Shown: positions 10,647-46,687 of the stretch, in pieces
Position numbering within the stretch: position 1 is the stretch's first letter
Layout: each line of letters starts with the position of its first letter
Origin: Streptomyces sp. NBRC 110035
GTDB taxonomy: Bacteria; Actinomycetota; Actinomycetes; Streptomycetales; Streptomycetaceae
Assembly (NCBI RefSeq): GCF_000829695.1
Contig: NZ_BBNN01000033.1
Span: forward strand, 84,910 to 148,909
DNA: 64,000 nucleotides
Direction: 5' to 3'
Made by a program: the position numbers and the translations under genes
Notes under the pieces: model-generated
Seen by the model: the letters and a program-made list of their open reading frames with translations, nothing else
What the model was told of the DNA's origin: nothing
Database searches by the model: none

Positions 10647-11010
10647 AGCGCGACCACCCTACGGCCCGGCACCGACAATCGTGTGCCGACCGCGAGGGCC
10701 GTGGGCCGTGGACGCACAGGTGGGCGCGGCACGAGGTGCGGACGAACACGTTTCCGGTCGGATACGTGTCATCGGGCACCAGGCCCCGGCAGGGAGCCGG
10801 GAGGGCATCGCGGCGGCCGCTCTCCGGCGCGTGTCCAGGCCAGGGAGCTCGTAGCGAAACCGTTGCCGTTCCGGCGGTTGTCCAGCACGGCGAACGCATA
10901 GTGTGTGGTGCCGTTCCCGGTGGTCGTGCAACGGGTCCGGGCTCCGTTCGGGTCCGCGGTGCGAGCACGGCCCACGCACCAAGTTCGTCCATATCAGGGG
11001 GAGTCAGATC
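10647..11010. other. Intergenic region, divergent promoters
   Basis: These 364 bases separate the helicase gene from the divergent serine protease gene and must hold both promoters. Short open frames exist on both strands but have no ribosome site and no recognisable domain. The only motif that I would point to is a loose inverted repeat around 10746-10770 (ACACGT, 12-base spacer, ACGTGT). No terminator or RNA gene was recognised. Confidence 0.4.
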
Positions 11011-36116: not shown

Positions 36117-36280
36117 GGGTTCCACCCGATTTGCTTGAGTCGATCGCTTCACGTCAATGACGCTAGCGCCTGCCACTGACAACGCGCCCCGACGCACCTC
36201 CAGCCTGTGGACAACCGAAGCCCATTCCTGCCCCAACCGGGTCGAACCGCTCATCTTCGGGCTCCACCGGCACACTCATG

Positions 36281-40159: not shown

Positions 40160-40256
40160 GCGGCCATTGTCGCGCGCTGTGGACAGCGCTCCCCGCCGGA
40201 CCACGGGACCACGGCACGCAGGGGGCCGGGCATCCGCCCGGCTCACCCCCGTTGAT

Positions 40257-41571
40257 GCTCCTATTGGCTGTCAAGCGGCGGTGAGCCAGTCGCGGTAGGT
40301 GTTGGCGAGGTCGTCGTCTCGGCGGATTCCGCGTTCGAGGGTGGAGATCGTGGCGGGCCAGACTCCGAAGTGGCAGGCCGCTGCGGTGAGGGTGATGTTC
40401 TTCGACTGTCGCAGGGGCCGCAGGTCGGCTGTGTCGGGGCTGGTGACCGTGGTGGTCAGGCAGCGGAACACCTCCCGGGCGATGGCCCGTTTCAGCAGCC
40501 GGATGATCTCCTTTCTTGGTTCGGCCGGCGGCGGTCTGCCGTGCCACATAGTCGCGGGTGCGGGGATCGCTGGACATGCGGACCAGGGCGATGCGGTAGA
40601 GGGCGGCGTTGGCCGCCCGGTCGCCGCCCCGGGACAGGCGATGACGGTTCGTGCGGCCGCTGGAGGCGGGGACCGGGGCGGCTCCGCAGAGGGCGGCGAA
40701 GGACGCCTCGGTCCGCAGGCGTTCGGGATTGCCTCCGGCGGTGACCAGCAGCTGGGCGGCGGTGTCGGGGCCGACGCCGTAGGCGGCCCGCAGGCCGGGG
40801 TTGTGGACGGTGACCTCACTGTCGAGGGCCCGGGTCAGGGCCTGGTGTTCGGCGGTGAGTTCCCTGACGCGCCGGGCGAGGCTCTTCAGCGCGGTGAGGA
40901 CCGCTGTGTGGACCGCGTCCCCGGCCGGTCGCAGCCGGGCCAGGGCGTCGATCCGGTCGGTGCCCTTGAGCTGCCCGAACTTGGCGCGGATGCTCTCGGG
41001 CGCGGTGACGAGGATGTGGGTGATCTGGTTGAGGGCGGCGGTGCGTGCCTTGACGGCGGAGCGGGCGGCGTTGTGCAGGGCGCGTATGCCGGCGACGGTG
41101 TCGTCCTTGGGCGAGCTGGAGGCCCGGCCGGACAGGGCGGCGCGGGCGGCGGCGTAGGCGTCGACGGGGTCGGACTTGCCGATGCGGCGGCGTTCGGCCC
41201 GGTCGGGCCGGTTGACCTCGACGATGTCAAGGCCCGCCGAGCGGGCGGCGCGGGTGAAGCCGGCCCCGTAGGAGGCGGTGCCTTCCACCCCGATCGCCCT
41301 CACGTGGCCGTGGGCGCTGAGGAAGGCCAGGGCCGCGGCGTATCCGGCGGCGGCAGTGGCGAACTCGGCGTCCGCGAGGTGACCGCCGTTGTCGCTGATG
41401 ACCGCGACGTGGACGGTGTCGGCGTGGGAGTCGACCCCGCCGAACACGTACCGGTCCACGGTGTCCTCCGCAGCCTCTGATGTCATGCTGATACTGCCTT
41501 CCCAGCCGAAGGTGGGCGCCGGCCGGGTGGCGCAGACAGGACATTGAAGGGGCTTCTGACCAAGCTCCTAT
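40257..41571 (-). mobile_element. IS110-family insertion sequence
   Basis: The element is about 1.3 kb and carries one transposase gene on the minus strand. Both ends carry the same 8-mer ATAGGAGC in transposase orientation (minus 40264-40257 and minus 41571-41564; GCTCCTAT on the plus strand), in line with IS110 elements, which recombine at a short shared core and lack terminal inverted repeats. The right end sequence GCTTGACAGCCAATAGGAGCATC and left end GATAGGAGCTTGG look like typical streptomycete IS110 ends (from memory). The insertion lies between the AraC-regulator and lhr genes and disrupts neither. About 77 noncoding bases precede the transposase, where IS110 elements encode their bridge RNA. 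Confidence 0.75.
40271..41486 (-). pseudogene. IS110 transposase with a +1 frameshift
   Basis: The N-terminal DEDD (RuvC-like) domain is intact: GVDSHADTVHVAVI, AIGVEGTASYGAGF, RIGKSDPVDAYAAA. The C-terminal Ser domain LCGAAPVPASSGRTNRHRLSRGGDRAANAALYRIALVRMSSDPRTRDYVARQTAAGRTKK is also intact up to about 40515. There the frame breaks: continuing gives GDHPAAETG, while the +1 frame gives the expected EIIRLLKRAIAREVF and a natural C-terminus ending at 40271 (TISTLERGIRRDDDLANTYRDWLTAA). The minus-strand sequence at the break is AAGAAAGGAG, one base longer than expected. Without recoding, the protein reads through into unrelated sequence for some 370 residues. The simplest view is a one-base insertion that inactivates it. 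Confidence 0.85.
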
Positions 41572-41731
41572 CAGGTCATGTTCCGCCCGGCCGGAGCCAT
41601 GAGAACAGGCCCCGGCGGCCGGACAGAACAACGCGAAGACAGCCCAGCAGGACGTCAGTCAGTGCCCGGGTCACGACCACCGGAACCCGAGTATCAGCAT
41701 CAATGTCAGTGCCCGGGTGCAGGATGGACGC
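41572..41731 (+). other. Upstream region of lhr with a 14-bp direct repeat
   Basis: GTCAGTGCCCGGGT occurs at 41658-41671 and again at 41705-41718, 47 bases apart, the second copy ending 13 bases before the lhr start. No gene is supported in this spacer, which abuts the IS110 element. Confidence 0.6.
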
Positions 41732-44700
41732 ATGGTCAGTACTCCGCACCCGGCCCTGGACGGCTTCTCCGCCGCGACCCGCGGCTGGTTCGCGGGTGCG
41801 TTCTCCACGCCCACCGCGGCCCAGGCGGGCGCGTGGCGTGCCCTCCGGGAGGGTTCGGACGTGCTGGTGGTCGCCCCCACCGGCTCCGGCAAGACACTGG
41901 CCGCCTTCCTCGCGGCCCTGGACCAGCTGGCCGCCGCGCCTCCGCCCGCGGACCACCACAAGCGCTGCCGCGTCCTGTACGTCTCCCCGCTCAAGGCCCT
42001 GGCCGTCGACGTCGAGCGCAATCTGCGCAGCCCGCTGACCGGCATCCGCCAGGAGTCCGTGCGCCTGGGGCTGCCCGAGCCCGAGGTGAAGGTCGGGATC
42101 CGTTCCGGCGACACCCCGCCCGCCGAGCGACGGGCCCTGGCCACCCGCCCGCCGGACATCCTGATCACCACCCCGGAGTCCTTGTTCCTGATGCTGACGT
42201 CAGCCGCGCGCGACGCGCTGACGGGCGTCGAGACGGTGATCCTGGACGAGGTGCACGCGGTCGCCGGTACCAAGCGCGGGGCGCATCTGGGGCTGTCCCT
42301 GGAGCGGCTGGACGAGCTGCTGCCCCGGCCGGCCCGCCGTATCGGCCTGTCGGCGACGGTCCGTCCGGTCGACGAGATCGCCCGTTTCCTGTCCCCGCGC
42401 GGCAGGGTGGAGATCGTCCAGCCGGATTCGGGCAAGGAGTTCGACCTGTCCGTCGTGGTCCCGGTCGAGGACCTGGGCGAGCTGAGCGGCTCTCCGGCGG
42501 CGGACGGCGCGGAGGGGGCCGGGGGTGCGGAGCGCCCGTCGATCTGGCCGCACGTCGAGGAGCGGATCGCCGACCTGGTCCAGTCCCACCGTTCGACGAT
42601 CGTGTTCGCGAACTCCCGCCGCCTCGCGGAGCGCCTGTGCAACCGGCTCAACGAGATCGCCCACGAGCGGGCCACCGGCGAGCCCCTGGACGAGCACCAC
42701 TCCCCCGCCGAGCCGATGGGCGGCTCCGGAGCCGCCCGGGGCGCACCCGCCGTCATCGCCCGCGCGCACCACGGCTCGGTGTCCAAGGAGCAGCGCGCCC
42801 AGGTCGAGGAGGACCTCAAGGCGGGCCGGCTGCCCGCGGTGGTGGCCACATCCAGCCTTGAACTGGGTATCGACATGGGTGCGGTCGACCTGGTGGTCCA
42901 GGTGGAGTCGCCGCCCTCCGTGGCCTCGGGGCTCCAGCGGGTCGGCCGCGCGGGGCACCAGGTGGGAGCGGTCTCCACGGGGGTGGTGTTCCCGAAGTAC
43001 CGGGGCGACCTCGTCCAGGCCGCCGTGGTCACCGAGCGGATGCGGACGGGCTCCATCGAGTCGCTGCGCGTTCCCGCGAACCCGCTGGACGTGCTGGCCC
43101 AGCAGATCGTCGCCATGACGGCCATGGACACCTGGCAGTTCGACGACCTCCTGGCGGTGGTCCGCCGGGCCGCGCCCTTCGCCTCACTGCCCGAGTCGGC
43201 CTTCACGGCCGTACTGGACATGCTCGCCGGACGCTATCCCTCCGACGCGTTCGCGGAGCTGCGCCCGCGGGTGGTGTGGGACCGGGTCACGGGCGGGATC
43301 ACCGGCCGTCCGGGGGCGCAGCGGCTCGCCGTCACCTCCGGGGGCACCATCCCCGACCGGGGCCTGTTCGGGGTGTTCCTCGCGGGCTCCGACCCCAGGA
43401 AGGGCGGCGGACGGGTCGGCGAGCTCGACGAGGAGATGGTCTACGAGTCCCGCGTCGGCGATGTGTTCACACTCGGCACCAGTTCCTGGCGCATCGAGGA
43501 CATCACGCGCGACCGGGTGCTGGTCTCCCCGGCCCCGGGTGTGCCGGGCCGGCTCCCGTTCTGGAAGGGCGACCAGCTGGGCCGCCCGCTGGAGCTGGGC
43601 CGCGCGGTGGGCGCCTTCCTGCGCGAGGTCGGCTCGCTGTCTCCGCAGGAGGCACGTCCTCGGCTCCTCGCCGCCGGCCTCGACACCTGGGCCGCGGACA
43701 ATGTGCTGTCCTACCTCGGCGAACAGCGCCAGGCCTGCGGCCACGTCCCGGACGACCGCACGATCGTCGTGGAGCGCTTCCGTGACGAGCTCGGCGACTG
43801 GCGGGTCGTCGTGCACTCCCCGTTCGGCGCCCAGGTGCACGCCCCGTGGGCGCTCGCGCTCGGGGCGCGTCTCTCCGAGCGGTACGGCATGGACGCCCAG
43901 GTGATGCACGCCGACGACGGCATCGTGCTGCGCCTGCCGGACGCCGACCTGATGGGCCTGGACCTGCTCGACCAGGAGCCGGTGCGCGCGGGCACCGAGT
44001 ACGACACGGACCAGGCGCCCCTGGGAGCGTCGGACGTCCTCTTCGACAAGGGGGAGGTCGACCAGGTCGTCACCGACCAGGTGGGCGGCTCGGCGCTGTT
44101 CGCGTCCCGCTTCCGCGAGTGCGCCGCCCGTGCGCTGCTGCTGCCGCGCCGCAGTCCCGGCAAGCGCACCCCGCTGTGGCAGCAGCGTCAGCGTGCGTCC
44201 CAGCTGCTCCAGGTGGCGGGCGGGTTCGGGTCGTTCCCGATCGTTCTGGAGGCGGTCCGCGAATGTCTCCAGGACGTCTTCGACGTCCCCGGGCTCGTCG
44301 AGCTGATGGGCGACCTGGAGTCCCGCAGGGTGCGGCTCGTCGAGGTCACCACCCCCGAGCCGTCCCCCTTCGCCCGCTCGCTGCTGTTCGGGTACGTCGC
44401 CCAGTTCCTGTACGAGGGCGACTCCCCGCTCGCCGAGCGCCGCGCGGCGGCCCTGTCGCTGGACTCGCGGCTGCTGGCCGAACTGCTCGGCCGGGCGGAG
44501 CTGCGCGAGCTGCTCGACGCCGAGGTGCTGGCCGAGCTGGAGCGTGAGCTGCTGTGGCTCACCGAGGACCGGCGGGTCAAGGATGCGGAGGGCGTGGCCG
44601 ACCTGCTGCGCGTGCTCGGCCCGCTCACCGGGGCCGAGCTGGCGGAGCGGGGCGCCGAGCCGCGGTGGGCGGCGGACCTGGTGTCGGCGCGCCGTGCGAT

Positions 44701-46687
44701 CCGGGTCCGCGTCGCCGGCACCGAGCACTGGGCGGCGATCGAGGATGCCGGGCGGCTGCGCGACGCGCTGGGCACGGCGCTGCCGGTCGGTGTGCCGGAA
44801 GCGTTCACCGAACCGGTCAAGGATCCGCTCGGCGACCTGCTCGCCCGGTACGCGCGCACGCACGGCCCGTTCACGTCGGCCACGGCCGCGGCCCGCTTCG
44901 GGCTGGGCGTGGCGGTCACCGAGGGCGCCCTGCAGCGGCTCTCGGCGGCGGGCCGGGTGGTCCAGGGCGAGTTCCACCCGGCCGGGATCGGCCAGGAATG
45001 GTGCGACGCGGCCGTGCTGCGCCGGCTGCGCCGCCGTTCCCTGGCGGCCCTGCGGCACGAGCTGGAACCGGTGCCGCCGGCCGCGCTCGCCCAGTTCCTC
45101 CCCCAGTGGCAGCACATCGGCAAGGGGCACACGCTGCGCGGCGTCGACGGTCTGGTGCGGGCGATCGAGCAGTTGCAGGGCGCCTCCGTGCCCGCGTCCG
45201 CCCTGGAGAAGCTGGTCCTGCCCTCCCGGGTGGCGCACTACGCCCCGGCGATGCTGGACGAGCTCACGGCCACCGGCGAGGTGGTGTGGGCGGGTGCCGG
45301 TTCCCTCCCGGGCAAGGACGGCTGGGTCTCGCTCCACCTCGCGGACGCGGCCGCCCTGCTGCTGCCGCCACCGCACCCCCTGGAGACGACCGCCCTGCAC
45401 CAGTCGGTCCTCGACGCCCTTTCCGGCGGCTACGGGCTGTTCTTCCGCCAGATCGCCGACCAGGTCCGCGCCACCACCCACCCGGAGGCCACCGATCCCC
45501 AGCTGGCCGACGCCGTCTGGGACCTGGCCTGGTCCGGCCGGCTGACCAACGACACGCTCGCCCCCCTGCGCTCGCTGCTGGGCTCGGGCCGCACCGCGGG
45601 CTCCACCGCCCACCGCGCGAAGCGCCCGGCCCCGCGCGGGCGCTACGGCTCGCTCACGGCAGCCGCCCGCGGCACCTCCCGTACCGGCCCTCCGACGGTG
45701 GCCGGTCGCTGGTCGCTGCTGCCGGACCGGGAGACCGATCCCACGGTCCGCGCCCACGCGCTGGCCCGCACCCTGCTCGACCGGCACGGCGTGGTCACCC
45801 GGGGCGCGGTGGCCGCGGAGGGCGTCGAAGGCGGTTTCTCCGCGGTCTACCGCGTGCTGTCGGCCTTCGAGGAGACCGGGCAGGCCCGCCGCGGCTATGT
45901 GGTGGAAGGGCTGGGGGCCGCTCAGTTCGCCATGGACGGCGCCGTGGACCGCCTCCGCGCGGCGGCCAACGCCCTCGACCGGGGCGACGCCCCGCCCGGG
46001 CCCGTCCCGGGGGACTCGTTCGAGGGCGTCCCCTTCGCCGGCGGCACCGATCCCCTCGCTCTGCACGGCTTCACTCCGCCCGTCGATTCCGCCGACGGCT
46101 CTCCCGAGCCCGCACCCGGCCACGACGGCTTCCCGCACCTCCCGGACGGCGGCGGCCGGGCACCGTACCCGCGGCCGTCGCCGGGCGACTACGTCTCCCC
46201 GCGCGACCTCGCCCCGCAGGAGCCCGGCTCCCGGCAGCAGGGGAGGCGCCCGTCGTACGACCCGTTCGCGGGCCGGCGCACCGGCCCCGACCGCGCCCTG
46301 CGGGCCGTGGTCCTGGCCGCCGCCGACCCCGCGAACGCGTACGGGGCGGCCCTGGGCTGGCCCGAGCCCCCGACGGGCGCCGGACACAAGCCGGGACGCA
46401 AGGCGGGTTCGCTGGTGGTCCTCGTCGACGGTGAGCTGACGCTCTACGTGGAGCGCGGCGGCAAGACGGTGCTGGCCTGGCCCGCGGACCCGGACGGCGA
46501 ACCCGCCGACGACCCCCGTCTCCCCGTGGCGGCGGAGGCGCTCGCCGGAGCAGCCCGTGCGGGCTCCCTCGGCACGGTCACCGTGGAGCGGGTCAACGGT
46601 GCCCCGGCCCTGACCTCCCCGCTCGGGACGCTCCTGGAGGCCTCGGGCTTCGTCGCCACCCCCAGAGGTCTGCGCCTCCGCGCCTGA
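41732..46687 (+). CDS. lhr: Lhr-type large ATP-dependent helicase
   Basis: The 1651-residue superfamily 2 helicase has Walker A VVAPTGSGKTLAAFLAALD near residue 50, motif Ia YVSPLKALAVDVERNL, DEVH box VILDEVHAVAG near 172, motif III GLSATVRPVDEIARFL, and the C-terminal RecA motifs SSLELGIDMGAVDLV and LQRVGRAGHQVG. A winged helix and a beta-barrel follow (Lhr core), then the long Lhr C-terminal region. Family members unwind RNA:DNA and DNA forks with 3'-5' polarity and act in DNA repair. It is longer than mycobacterial Lhr because of a Pro/Gly-rich insert near residues 1420-1510. The ATG at 41732 has AGGATGG upstream. The DNA-repair glycosylase gene nei lies directly downstream. Confidence 0.95.
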   Translation: MVSTPHPALDGFSAATRGWFAGAFSTPTAAQAGAWRALREGSDVLVVAPTGSGKTLAAFLAALDQLAAAPPPADHHKRCRVLYVSPLKALAVDVERNLRSPLTGIRQESVRLGLPEPEVKVGIRSGDTPPAERRALATRPPDILITTPESLFLMLTSAARDALTGVETVILDEVHAVAGTKRGAHLGLSLERLDELLPRPARRIGLSATVRPVDEIARFLSPRGRVEIVQPDSGKEFDLSVVVPVEDLGELSGSPAADGAEGAGGAERPSIWPHVEERIADLVQSHRSTIVFANSRRLAERLCNRLNEIAHERATGEPLDEHHSPAEPMGGSGAARGAPAVIARAHHGSVSKEQRAQVEEDLKAGRLPAVVATSSLELGIDMGAVDLVVQVESPPSVASGLQRVGRAGHQVGAVSTGVVFPKYRGDLVQAAVVTERMRTGSIESLRVPANPLDVLAQQIVAMTAMDTWQFDDLLAVVRRAAPFASLPESAFTAVLDMLAGRYPSDAFAELRPRVVWDRVTGGITGRPGAQRLAVTSGGTIPDRGLFGVFLAGSDPRKGGGRVGELDEEMVYESRVGDVFTLGTSSWRIEDITRDRVLVSPAPGVPGRLPFWKGDQLGRPLELGRAVGAFLREVGSLSPQEARPRLLAAGLDTWAADNVLSYLGEQRQACGHVPDDRTIVVERFRDELGDWRVVVHSPFGAQVHAPWALALGARLSERYGMDAQVMHADDGIVLRLPDADLMGLDLLDQEPVRAGTEYDTDQAPLGASDVLFDKGEVDQVVTDQVGGSALFASRFRECAARALLLPRRSPGKRTPLWQQRQRASQLLQVAGGFGSFPIVLEAVRECLQDVFDVPGLVELMGDLESRRVRLVEVTTPEPSPFARSLLFGYVAQFLYEGDSPLAERRAAALSLDSRLLAELLGRAELRELLDAEVLAELERELLWLTEDRRVKDAEGVADLLRVLGPLTGAELAERGAEPRWAADLVSARRAIRVRVAGTEHWAAIEDAGRLRDALGTALPVGVPEAFTEPVKDPLGDLLARYARTHGPFTSATAAARFGLGVAVTEGALQRLSAAGRVVQGEFHPAGIGQEWCDAAVLRRLRRRSLAALRHELEPVPPAALAQFLPQWQHIGKGHTLRGVDGLVRAIEQLQGASVPASALEKLVLPSRVAHYAPAMLDELTATGEVVWAGAGSLPGKDGWVSLHLADAAALLLPPPHPLETTALHQSVLDALSGGYGLFFRQIADQVRATTHPEATDPQLADAVWDLAWSGRLTNDTLAPLRSLLGSGRTAGSTAHRAKRPAPRGRYGSLTAAARGTSRTGPPTVAGRWSLLPDRETDPTVRAHALARTLLDRHGVVTRGAVAAEGVEGGFSAVYRVLSAFEETGQARRGYVVEGLGAAQFAMDGAVDRLRAAANALDRGDAPPGPVPGDSFEGVPFAGGTDPLALHGFTPPVDSADGSPEPAPGHDGFPHLPDGGGRAPYPRPSPGDYVSPRDLAPQEPGSRQQGRRPSYDPFAGRRTGPDRALRAVVLAAADPANAYGAALGWPEPPTGAGHKPGRKAGSLVVLVDGELTLYVERGGKTVLAWPADPDGEPADDPRLPVAAEALAGAARAGSLGTVTVERVNGAPALTSPLGTLLEASGFVATPRGLRLRA

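What the first reader, a model, noticed from the sequence alone, without database searches (positions are those of the whole stretch)
40257..41571. IS110 element with a frameshifted transposase and recognisable ends
Both domains of the IS110 recombinase are present but separated by a +1 shift at about 40515 (AAGAAAGGAG). Both boundaries carry ATAGGAGC. The noncoding stretch before the transposase, where IS110 elements encode the bridge RNA that selects donor and target DNA, is only about 77 nt, much shorter than I recall for the characterised IS621 bridge RNA. Either the RNA extends outside these ends or into the coding sequence, or this is a minimal form. The frameshift could be a dead copy or, less likely, +1 recoding.
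Basis: partly seen in the sequence, partly recalled or inferred. Interest (0 to 1): 0.55.

Follow-up and report, generated by a model that had tools for sequence, protein, structure and literature searches.

The report
RNA-guided transposon homing to DNA-damage promoters
This is a jumping gene of Streptomyces whose predicted guide RNA appears to steer it into the promoters of DNA-repair and related genes; the copy found here sits in such a promoter, but its enzyme gene is broken near the end.

Summary
The IS110 element is real, but its right end was misplaced. It spans 40255-41703 (1449 bp between two 2-bp cores), not 40257-41571; all 14 empty sites inspected fit this. The second ATAGGAGC (41564-41571) is not an end: it lies inside a 217-nt noncoding region (41487-41703) that folds like a bridge RNA, where it is the left donor guide. 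Both recombinase domains are in one frame. The frame change near 40515 spoils the last helix region and a C-terminal helix-turn-helix-like tail. Both copies of this genome have it; a string search found it in no locus from another genome.

Among 62 unique copies, three of the four guides covary with the copy's own flanks or left end. Read towards the gene, the target is TGTCRGTG-N8-TAnnnT, the published PafBC/RecA-NDp DNA-damage promoter motif (PMC5656591). Of 57 copies outside transposase-like coding sequence, 50 have a -10-like box at exactly that spacing, beyond the reach of the guide. Here the copy sits before an Lhr-type helicase gene; the motif also precedes recA and a DinG-like helicase in this window. 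The mechanism is a known kind. The target class is the new part.

The parts
40255..41703 (-). Whole IS110-group element (between the two 2-bp cores)
   Evidence: Alignment of copies, 14 of 14 empty sites inspected, coordinates
40253..40254 (-). Right core CA
   Evidence: 2-bp overlap of the two flanks with the empty site
41704..41705 (-). Left core CA
   Evidence: As above
40271..41486 (-). Recombinase (transposase) gene, frame changed within 40505-40520; domains DEDD_Tnp_IS110 and Transposase_20 intact upstream of the change
40274..40513 (-). Out-of-frame C-terminal stretch with helix-turn-helix-like match (HTH_31, E 5.5e-4, below Pfam cut-off)
41487..41703 (-). Left-end noncoding region, predicted bridge RNA
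   Evidence: Consensus folds of 49 of 53 distinct relatives' regions: target hairpin 98.7% and donor hairpin 98.3% of cells paired; no Rfam family near its gathering score
41659..41670 (-). Left target guide (CCCGGGCACTGA), identical to the left target at 41706-41717
41629..41638 (-). Right target guide (CTTCGCGTTG), pairs with core plus right target CAACG... at 40254 downwards
41560..41572 (-). Left donor guide containing ATAGGAGC, matches right end AATAGGAGCAT (40255-40265)
   Evidence: By reading the alignment and coordinates; near-invariant, so not tested by covariation
41542..41548 (-). Right donor guide (TTCAATG), complementary to core plus left end CATTGA
   Evidence: 46 of 51 unique copies exact over 6 nt
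41704..41725 (+). Occupied target: TGTCAGTG-CCCGGGTG-CAGGAT, PafBC/RecA-NDp type promoter of the helicase gene
41732..46687 (+). Lhr-type ATP-dependent helicase gene downstream of the target promoter
   Evidence: NCBIfam NF007284 1664.1 bits, cut-off 1496

Best explanation
It is an IS110-group insertion sequence whose left-end noncoding region encodes a bridge RNA. In intact relatives the recombinase would excise the element as a circle with junction AATAGGAGCAT-CA-TTGATGCTG. The donor loop (LDG/RDG) would hold this junction, and the target loop (LTG/RTG) would pair with a site TGTCRGTG (read towards the gene), recombining at the shared CA/TG dinucleotide. That target is the conserved part of the PafBC (RecA-NDp) DNA-damage promoter, so the family homes to promoters of DNA-repair and related genes. 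Because the core is duplicated, the gene side keeps TGTCRGTG-N8-TAnnnT and only the weakly conserved leading t is replaced, which should make insertion fairly harmless (inferred). The window copy entered the promoter of an Lhr-type helicase gene by this route and its recombinase gene has lost its frame near the C-terminus, so it is probably not autonomous. Shown from sequence: ends, core, guide matches and covariation, fold, target motif. Inferred: RNA expression, recombination steps, mildness of insertion, loss of activity, PafBC control in this organism.
For: Ends and core: 14 of 14 empty sites inspected read TTGTCAG across the junction; two (L141, L147) equal the window's flanks put end to end over CCCCGTTGTCAGTGCCCGGGTGC. 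Guides, 62 unique copies: LT -5 to -8 match the own guide in 224 of 248 cells, shuffled mean 146.3, maximum 173 of 10,000 shuffles; RT +3 to +6 102 of 152 (mean 73.6, maximum 92; 38 copies); RDG 46 of 51 (mean 28.9, maximum 38). Fold. Motif: tTGTCRgtg - 8 nt - TannnT (PMC5656591, passage). xAxxxT occurs at the -10 distance in 55 of 62 copies and in 0-3 at the 17 other offsets that could be scored; 5 of the 55 lie in transposase-like coding sequence, leaving 50 of 57. No covariation at -9 to -16, so the -10 box is not read by the guide. In this window the motif also precedes recA and a DinG-like helicase. Neighbours elsewhere include AlkZ-like, DnaE, DnaN, DnaX, RadA and an Lhr-type helicase.
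Against: No RNA, circle or transposition data. 7 of 57 sites outside transposase-like sequence lack the -10 at that spacing. Shuffles ignore the relatedness of copies, so they are not strict tests; positions -1 to -4 and the core hardly vary and say nothing. The left donor guide was not tested by covariation. TGTCAGTGS is in most cases already such a promoter in the genus (561 of 912 sites in 9 genomes), so homing may be no more than a frequent sequence being chosen. PafBC control is known to me from mycobacteria, not from this organism. Of 40 neighbour proteins scanned 13 match no family and only 9 are plainly replication, repair, helicase or nuclease proteins. The right target guide pairs imperfectly (+6: 18 of 38; +7 onward no better than shuffled).
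Confidence: 0.85

Rival explanations
1. The element simply targets a short sequence that is frequent in Streptomyces; that it is a DNA-damage promoter is incidental, with insertions inside genes removed by selection.
For: TGTCAGTGS already carries the -10 at N8 in 561 of 912 sites in 9 genomes of the genus, so the guide alone yields mostly promoters. A side branch with guides ATCAC/CAAGG-type sits in Mutator-type transposase genes instead.
Against: Insertions are more often in promoters than that background (35 of 39 against 561 of 912, Fisher p 1.6e-4), but selection would give the same. The guides differ among copies while the promoter class stays the same.
Confidence: 0.4
2. The frame change is programmed +1 recoding and the copy is active.
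For: Two copies in this genome at different targets carry it; frame 0 has no stop inside the element.
Against: Found in no locus from another genome. At least 30 of 63 loci were judged intact, single-frame and with the C-terminal motif. The two copies share an identical 437-nt 3' block apart from one short gap, so they are not independent.
Confidence: 0.05
3. The frame-changed enzyme is still active because the C-terminal tail is dispensable, or the copy is moved in trans by another IS110 enzyme.
For: Catalytic domains are in frame; IS621 is only 328 aa and aligns to residues 17-345 of an intact 404-aa relative; two copies at two targets.
Against: The change lies in the last conserved helix region (residues 323-345 of the intact relative, rich in invariant positions). 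The second copy is mosaic and lacks two bases of its left donor guide, as decaying copies would.
Confidence: 0.25
4. The frame change is an assembly or sequencing error.
For: It lies in an A/G run, and the block shared by both copies could have been given one consensus in an assembly of 89 contigs.
Against: Both contigs carry it with different flanks.
Confidence: 0.1

Closest known systems
IS621 (IS110 group) with its bridge RNA, PMC11208160
   Same: DEDD recombinase plus Tnp domain with conserved serine, long left end encoding an RNA with a target loop and a donor loop, 2-bp core, guides that covary with target and donor (passages); sequence match to 8wt6 and best Foldseek matches (on a model of mean pLDDT 70.1)
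   Different: Core CA here, CT in IS621; target is a DNA-damage promoter instead of REP elements; about 60 extra C-terminal residues with an HTH-like motif; inverted repeat AGCATCA/TGATGCT of 7 bp around the core in this copy, where that paper reports 2-3 bp for the IS110 group
IS1111-group elements and seekRNA, PMC11187229
   Same: RNA-guided site choice, each IS or group with its own target (section 13 read whole, other passages); inverted repeats of several bp near the ends
   Different: Here the RNA lies upstream of the recombinase gene (left end), as in the IS110 group
Mini-circle / IS117 and IS110 of Streptomyces coelicolor (recalled; seen here only as entries in the reference list of PMC11187229)
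   Same: Streptomyces, IS110 family (recalled)
   Different: Not compared here

Membership tests
IS110 family (IS110 group) | DEDD RuvC-like domain PF01548 and Tnp domain PF02371 with conserved serine | tested here: met
   P-A-S-S-G invariant in 24 of 24 aligned relatives
IS110 family (IS110 group) | NCBIfam NF033542 IS110 RNA-guided transposase above cut-off (tested on two intact relatives, not on the window copy) | tested here: met
   174.2 and 160.4 bits against cut-off 140 for L012 and L026
IS110 family (IS110 group) | Long noncoding left end, short right end | tested here: met
   217 nt left, 16 nt right of the stop codon
IS110 family (IS110 group) | Bridge RNA with target-binding and donor-binding internal loops | tested here: met
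   By sequence and predicted fold only; no expression data
IS110 family (IS110 group) | Circular intermediate and scarless recombination at a core dinucleotide | tested here: inconclusive
   2-bp core shown by empty sites; the circle is not testable with these tools
IS1111 group | Guide RNA in the right end, downstream of the recombinase | tested here: not met
   Right end is too short; guides lie in the left end
PafBC/RecA-NDp promoter (target) | tTGTCRgtg - 8 nt - TannnT | tested here: met
   TGTCRGTG-N8-TAnnnT exact in 27 of 62 insertion sites, xAxxxT at that place in 55 of 62, 5 of them in transposase-like coding sequence; the window site has CAGGAT, so it misses the first T
PafBC/RecA-NDp promoter (target) | Induction by DNA damage through PafBC | not testable with these tools
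   Own genome has two adjacent WYL-domain genes compatible with pafB-pafC

The most novel reading that the evidence does not exclude
A clade of bridge-RNA transposons has settled on the DNA-damage regulon as its home: it reads the PafBC promoter box, inserts so that the box is rebuilt on the gene side, and may couple its own movement to, or change, the host's DNA-damage response. The C-terminal HTH-like tail, beyond the IS621-like core, could be an added DNA- or promoter-reading part. A side branch has been reprogrammed by guide changes to another mobile element's transposase gene.
Probability: 0.3. Interest if true: 0.75.

Novelty: new member of a known kind. Interest (0 to 1): 0.5.

Why it matters
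Bridge-RNA elements are each aimed at their own target, but the targets known to me (REP elements, seen in PMC11208160; ends of Tn21-type transposons and attC sites, seen only in reference lists) are repeats or mobile DNA. A family aimed at a regulon's promoter box would be a natural case of RNA-guided homing to a regulatory class. It offers a large natural set of matched guides and targets in Streptomyces, testable in harmless laboratory strains, and bears on how a transposon finds a safe site and whether it rewires DNA repair.

Tried and rejected
Rejected: the minimal-form idea, because the right end was misplaced. Rejected: 41571 as an end; none of the copies aligned nor the empty sites support it. 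Rfam: two microRNA matches far below their gathering scores, nothing else up to E 1. The frame change as a family trait: not found in other genomes' loci. Structure prediction of an intact relative was mediocre (mean pLDDT 70.1, pTM 0.39); Foldseek ranks IS621 and ISCro4 chains first, but it says nothing reliable about the C-terminal tail. Searches for earlier reports, open-access library only: 'bridge RNA' + IS110 + Streptomyces (3 papers, none about this by title or by the listed start of the abstract); PafBC + IS110 + 'transposon insertion promoter' (0 papers holding two terms); 'IS110 family' + 'target site' + Streptomyces + promoter (2 papers). A RecA-NDp/TTGTC search listed 10 of 3,501 papers, all unrelated. 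ISfinder could not be searched, and no supplementary file was read.

Rows dropped: of 83 candidates (window included) 81 had a left-end match and 64 also a right-end match. 69 parsed into guides; 5 failed an anchor pattern (L089, L090, L091, L095, L109) and 7 had no recognisable core. 62 were unique. Right targets were read in 38 of 62. Four divergent rows were left out of the fold count, 49 of 53 kept. The automatic parse of the left donor guide failed for most rows, so that guide rests on the alignment. Of 61 neighbour proteins 40 were scanned. The 14 empty sites were picked from matches to the helicase side; 12 of 14 also match the gene on the other side. In 'intact' meant 395-420 residues and a tail pattern, so 30 of 63 is a lower bound.

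Full report
What is there. The window lies in G000:C57, a genome whose genus is that of the Streptomyces copies found later (57 of the 63 loci are titled Streptomyces). The minus strand holds an IS110-family recombinase gene starting at 41486. Pfam finds DEDD_Tnp_IS110 at residues 17-160 and Transposase_20 at 236-314 in one frame. The frame change near 40515 comes after both domains. What is out of frame is the last conserved helix region and about 60 residues with a weak helix-turn-helix match (HTH_31, E 5.5e-4 for the window stretch, 8.8e-5 and 0.035 for two intact relatives, all below Pfam's cut-off). IS621, 328 aa, aligns only to residues 17-345 of an intact 404-aa relative, so the tail extends beyond the characterised enzyme.

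Ends. Other copies align from about 40252 to 41709-41715 (392 genomes searched, 20 copies and the window). In all 14 empty sites inspected from genomes of the genus, the helicase promoter reads TTGTCAG without interruption. They were picked because they match the helicase side; 12 of 14 also match the gene on the other side. Comparing them with the window flanks leaves a 2-bp overlap, CA on the recombinase strand. The element is therefore 40255-41703.

Bridge RNA. The 217 nt between the left end and the start codon fold into two hairpins with large internal loops. Over 49 relatives the target hairpin has 98.7% and the donor hairpin 98.3% of cells paired, with 4 and 2 pairs changed on both sides. 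In the first loop lie the left target guide (41659-41670) and the right target guide (41629-41638), in the second the left and right donor guides. Over 62 unique copies the variable positions of the left target (-5 to -8) agree with the copy's own guide in 224 of 248 cells, against a shuffled mean of 146.3 (maximum 173 of 10,000). The right target (+3 to +6) agrees in 102 of 152 cells (mean 73.6, maximum 92; 38 copies). The right donor guide agrees with the element's own left end in 46 of 51 (mean 28.9, maximum 38). Shuffles ignore relatedness, and the left donor guide hardly varies, so it was not tested this way. Beyond -8 on the left and +6 on the right there is no covariation. At the circle junction AGCAT-CA-TTGATGCT the ends form an inverted repeat AGCATCA/TGATGCT (read); it is shorter in several relatives. 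PMC11208160 reports 2-3 bp for the IS110 group and 7-17 bp for IS1111 (passages). The RNA's position in the left end puts this element with the IS110 group.

Target. Read towards the neighbouring gene, the insertion sites are TGTCRGTG followed after 8 nt by a -10-like box. PMC5656591 (passages) gives tTGTCRgtg - 8 nt - TannnT as the consensus upstream of LexA-independent DNA-damage genes of Mycobacterium tuberculosis. PMC8223512 (passages) says this RecA-NDp motif extends to other Actinobacteria and that PafBC's motif closely resembles it. xAxxxT at exactly this distance occurs in 55 of 62 unique copies, against 0-3 at the 17 other offsets that could be scored. TGTCRGTG-N8-TAnnnT is exact in 27 of 62. 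Five of the 62 lie in transposase-like coding sequence and fit xAxxxT only by accident: L099 and L129 match Pfam's Mutator transposase, L025 and L031 read the same motif ending ISTITD, L131 only in part (QTISTTTDK; tentative). That leaves 50 of 57. The own genome has 17 perfect TTGTCRGTG-N8-TANNNT sites and none for the reversed control. Inside this window the looser motif occurs three times, with 0.11 expected by chance: before recA (36160-36181), before a DinG-like helicase gene (10656-10677; my naming, Pfam gives Helicase_C_2 and a DEAD match) and at the occupied site. The occupied site belongs to an Lhr-type helicase (NF007284 'ATP-dependent helicase', 1664.1 bits, cut-off 1496). The name Lhr, and that it is DNA-damage-inducible in mycobacteria, are recalled.

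Neighbours elsewhere. Of 61 candidate neighbour proteins other than the window's, 40 were scanned with Pfam. 13 of 40 match no family. 9 of 40 are plainly replication, repair, helicase or nuclease proteins: AlkZ-like glycosylase, DEAD helicase twice, PHP domain (DNA polymerase III alpha), DNA polymerase III beta, an ATPase that NCBIfam calls RadA, DNA polymerase III gamma/tau, endonuclease VII and HNH. The rest are mixed (NADAR, macro, WGR, glyoxalase, hydrolase, Cas3 HD, a transposase and others).

How special is the homing? TGTCAGTGS already carries the -10 at this spacing in 561 of 912 sites in nine genomes of the genus, but in 0 of 20, 17 of 161, 23 of 173 and 7 of 68 in four genomes of two other families. 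The broader TGTCRGTG has it in 112 of 1,004 sites of the own genome. So in Streptomyces the usual guide sequence by itself mostly means 'this promoter class'. Insertions are in promoters somewhat more often still (35 of 39, Fisher p 1.6e-4), which selection could explain. The insertion point leaves TGTCRGTG-N8-TAnnnT whole on the gene side (inferred); only the leading, weakly conserved t changes.

State of this copy. The genome has one more nearly full copy (C56, 91.6% identical) with the same frame change. Apart from short gaps the two are identical over 437 nt at the 3' side and 232 nt at the 5' side, but differ at 118 of about 788 positions (15%) between, 69 of them third codon positions. 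The window's middle is 97.9% identical to a copy from Streptomyces sp. NRRL S-37 (L084), so it is more likely the C56 copy that is mosaic. That copy also lacks two bases in its left donor guide. The frame change was found in no locus from another genome, while at least 30 of 63 loci were judged intact. I read it as recent damage; a still-active truncated enzyme or movement in trans is possible.

Verdict. The target class, the promoter box of the DNA-damage response, is what deserves attention. I found no report of it in the searches listed under Tried and rejected, which cover an open-access library only.

Noticed in passing
L016, L093, L110 (exact ORFs tested); L096, L101, L114, L115 (same kind by reading): Relatives of about 1.75-1.79 kb carry a small antisense ORF between the recombinase and the right end; the three tested match DUF7660 (E 6e-23 to 4e-22). 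Passenger genes in IS110-group elements.
   Followed up: partly
L015, L106, L112; L024, L126: Two further kinds of passenger ORF in relatives of 1.9 to 2.4 kb; none of the five matches Pfam at E 0.01.
   Followed up: partly
L025, L031, L099, L129 (L131 tentative): A branch with changed guides sits in a conserved stretch of Mutator-type transposase genes: looks like natural reprogramming of the target.
   Followed up: partly
window 36160-36181 and 10656-10677 (minus strand): PafBC/RecA-NDp type promoter boxes upstream of recA and of a DinG-like helicase gene.
   Followed up: yes
L041 (G000:C56:15000-26000): The second own-genome copy looks mosaic: identical ends, 15% different middle; a further fragment (76% identical, about 230 bp) lies about 6 kb away at C56:23867-24095.
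   Followed up: partly
G000:C68:85449-86642: Two adjacent WYL-domain genes, candidates for pafB and pafC.
   Followed up: no
window 40253-40279 next to 41686-41705 in the circle: The circle junction would place TTGACA (overlapping the recombinase stop codon) upstream of the left end, with a weak -10 (GATGCT) 18 nt further. A junction promoter is possible, by eye only.
   Followed up: no
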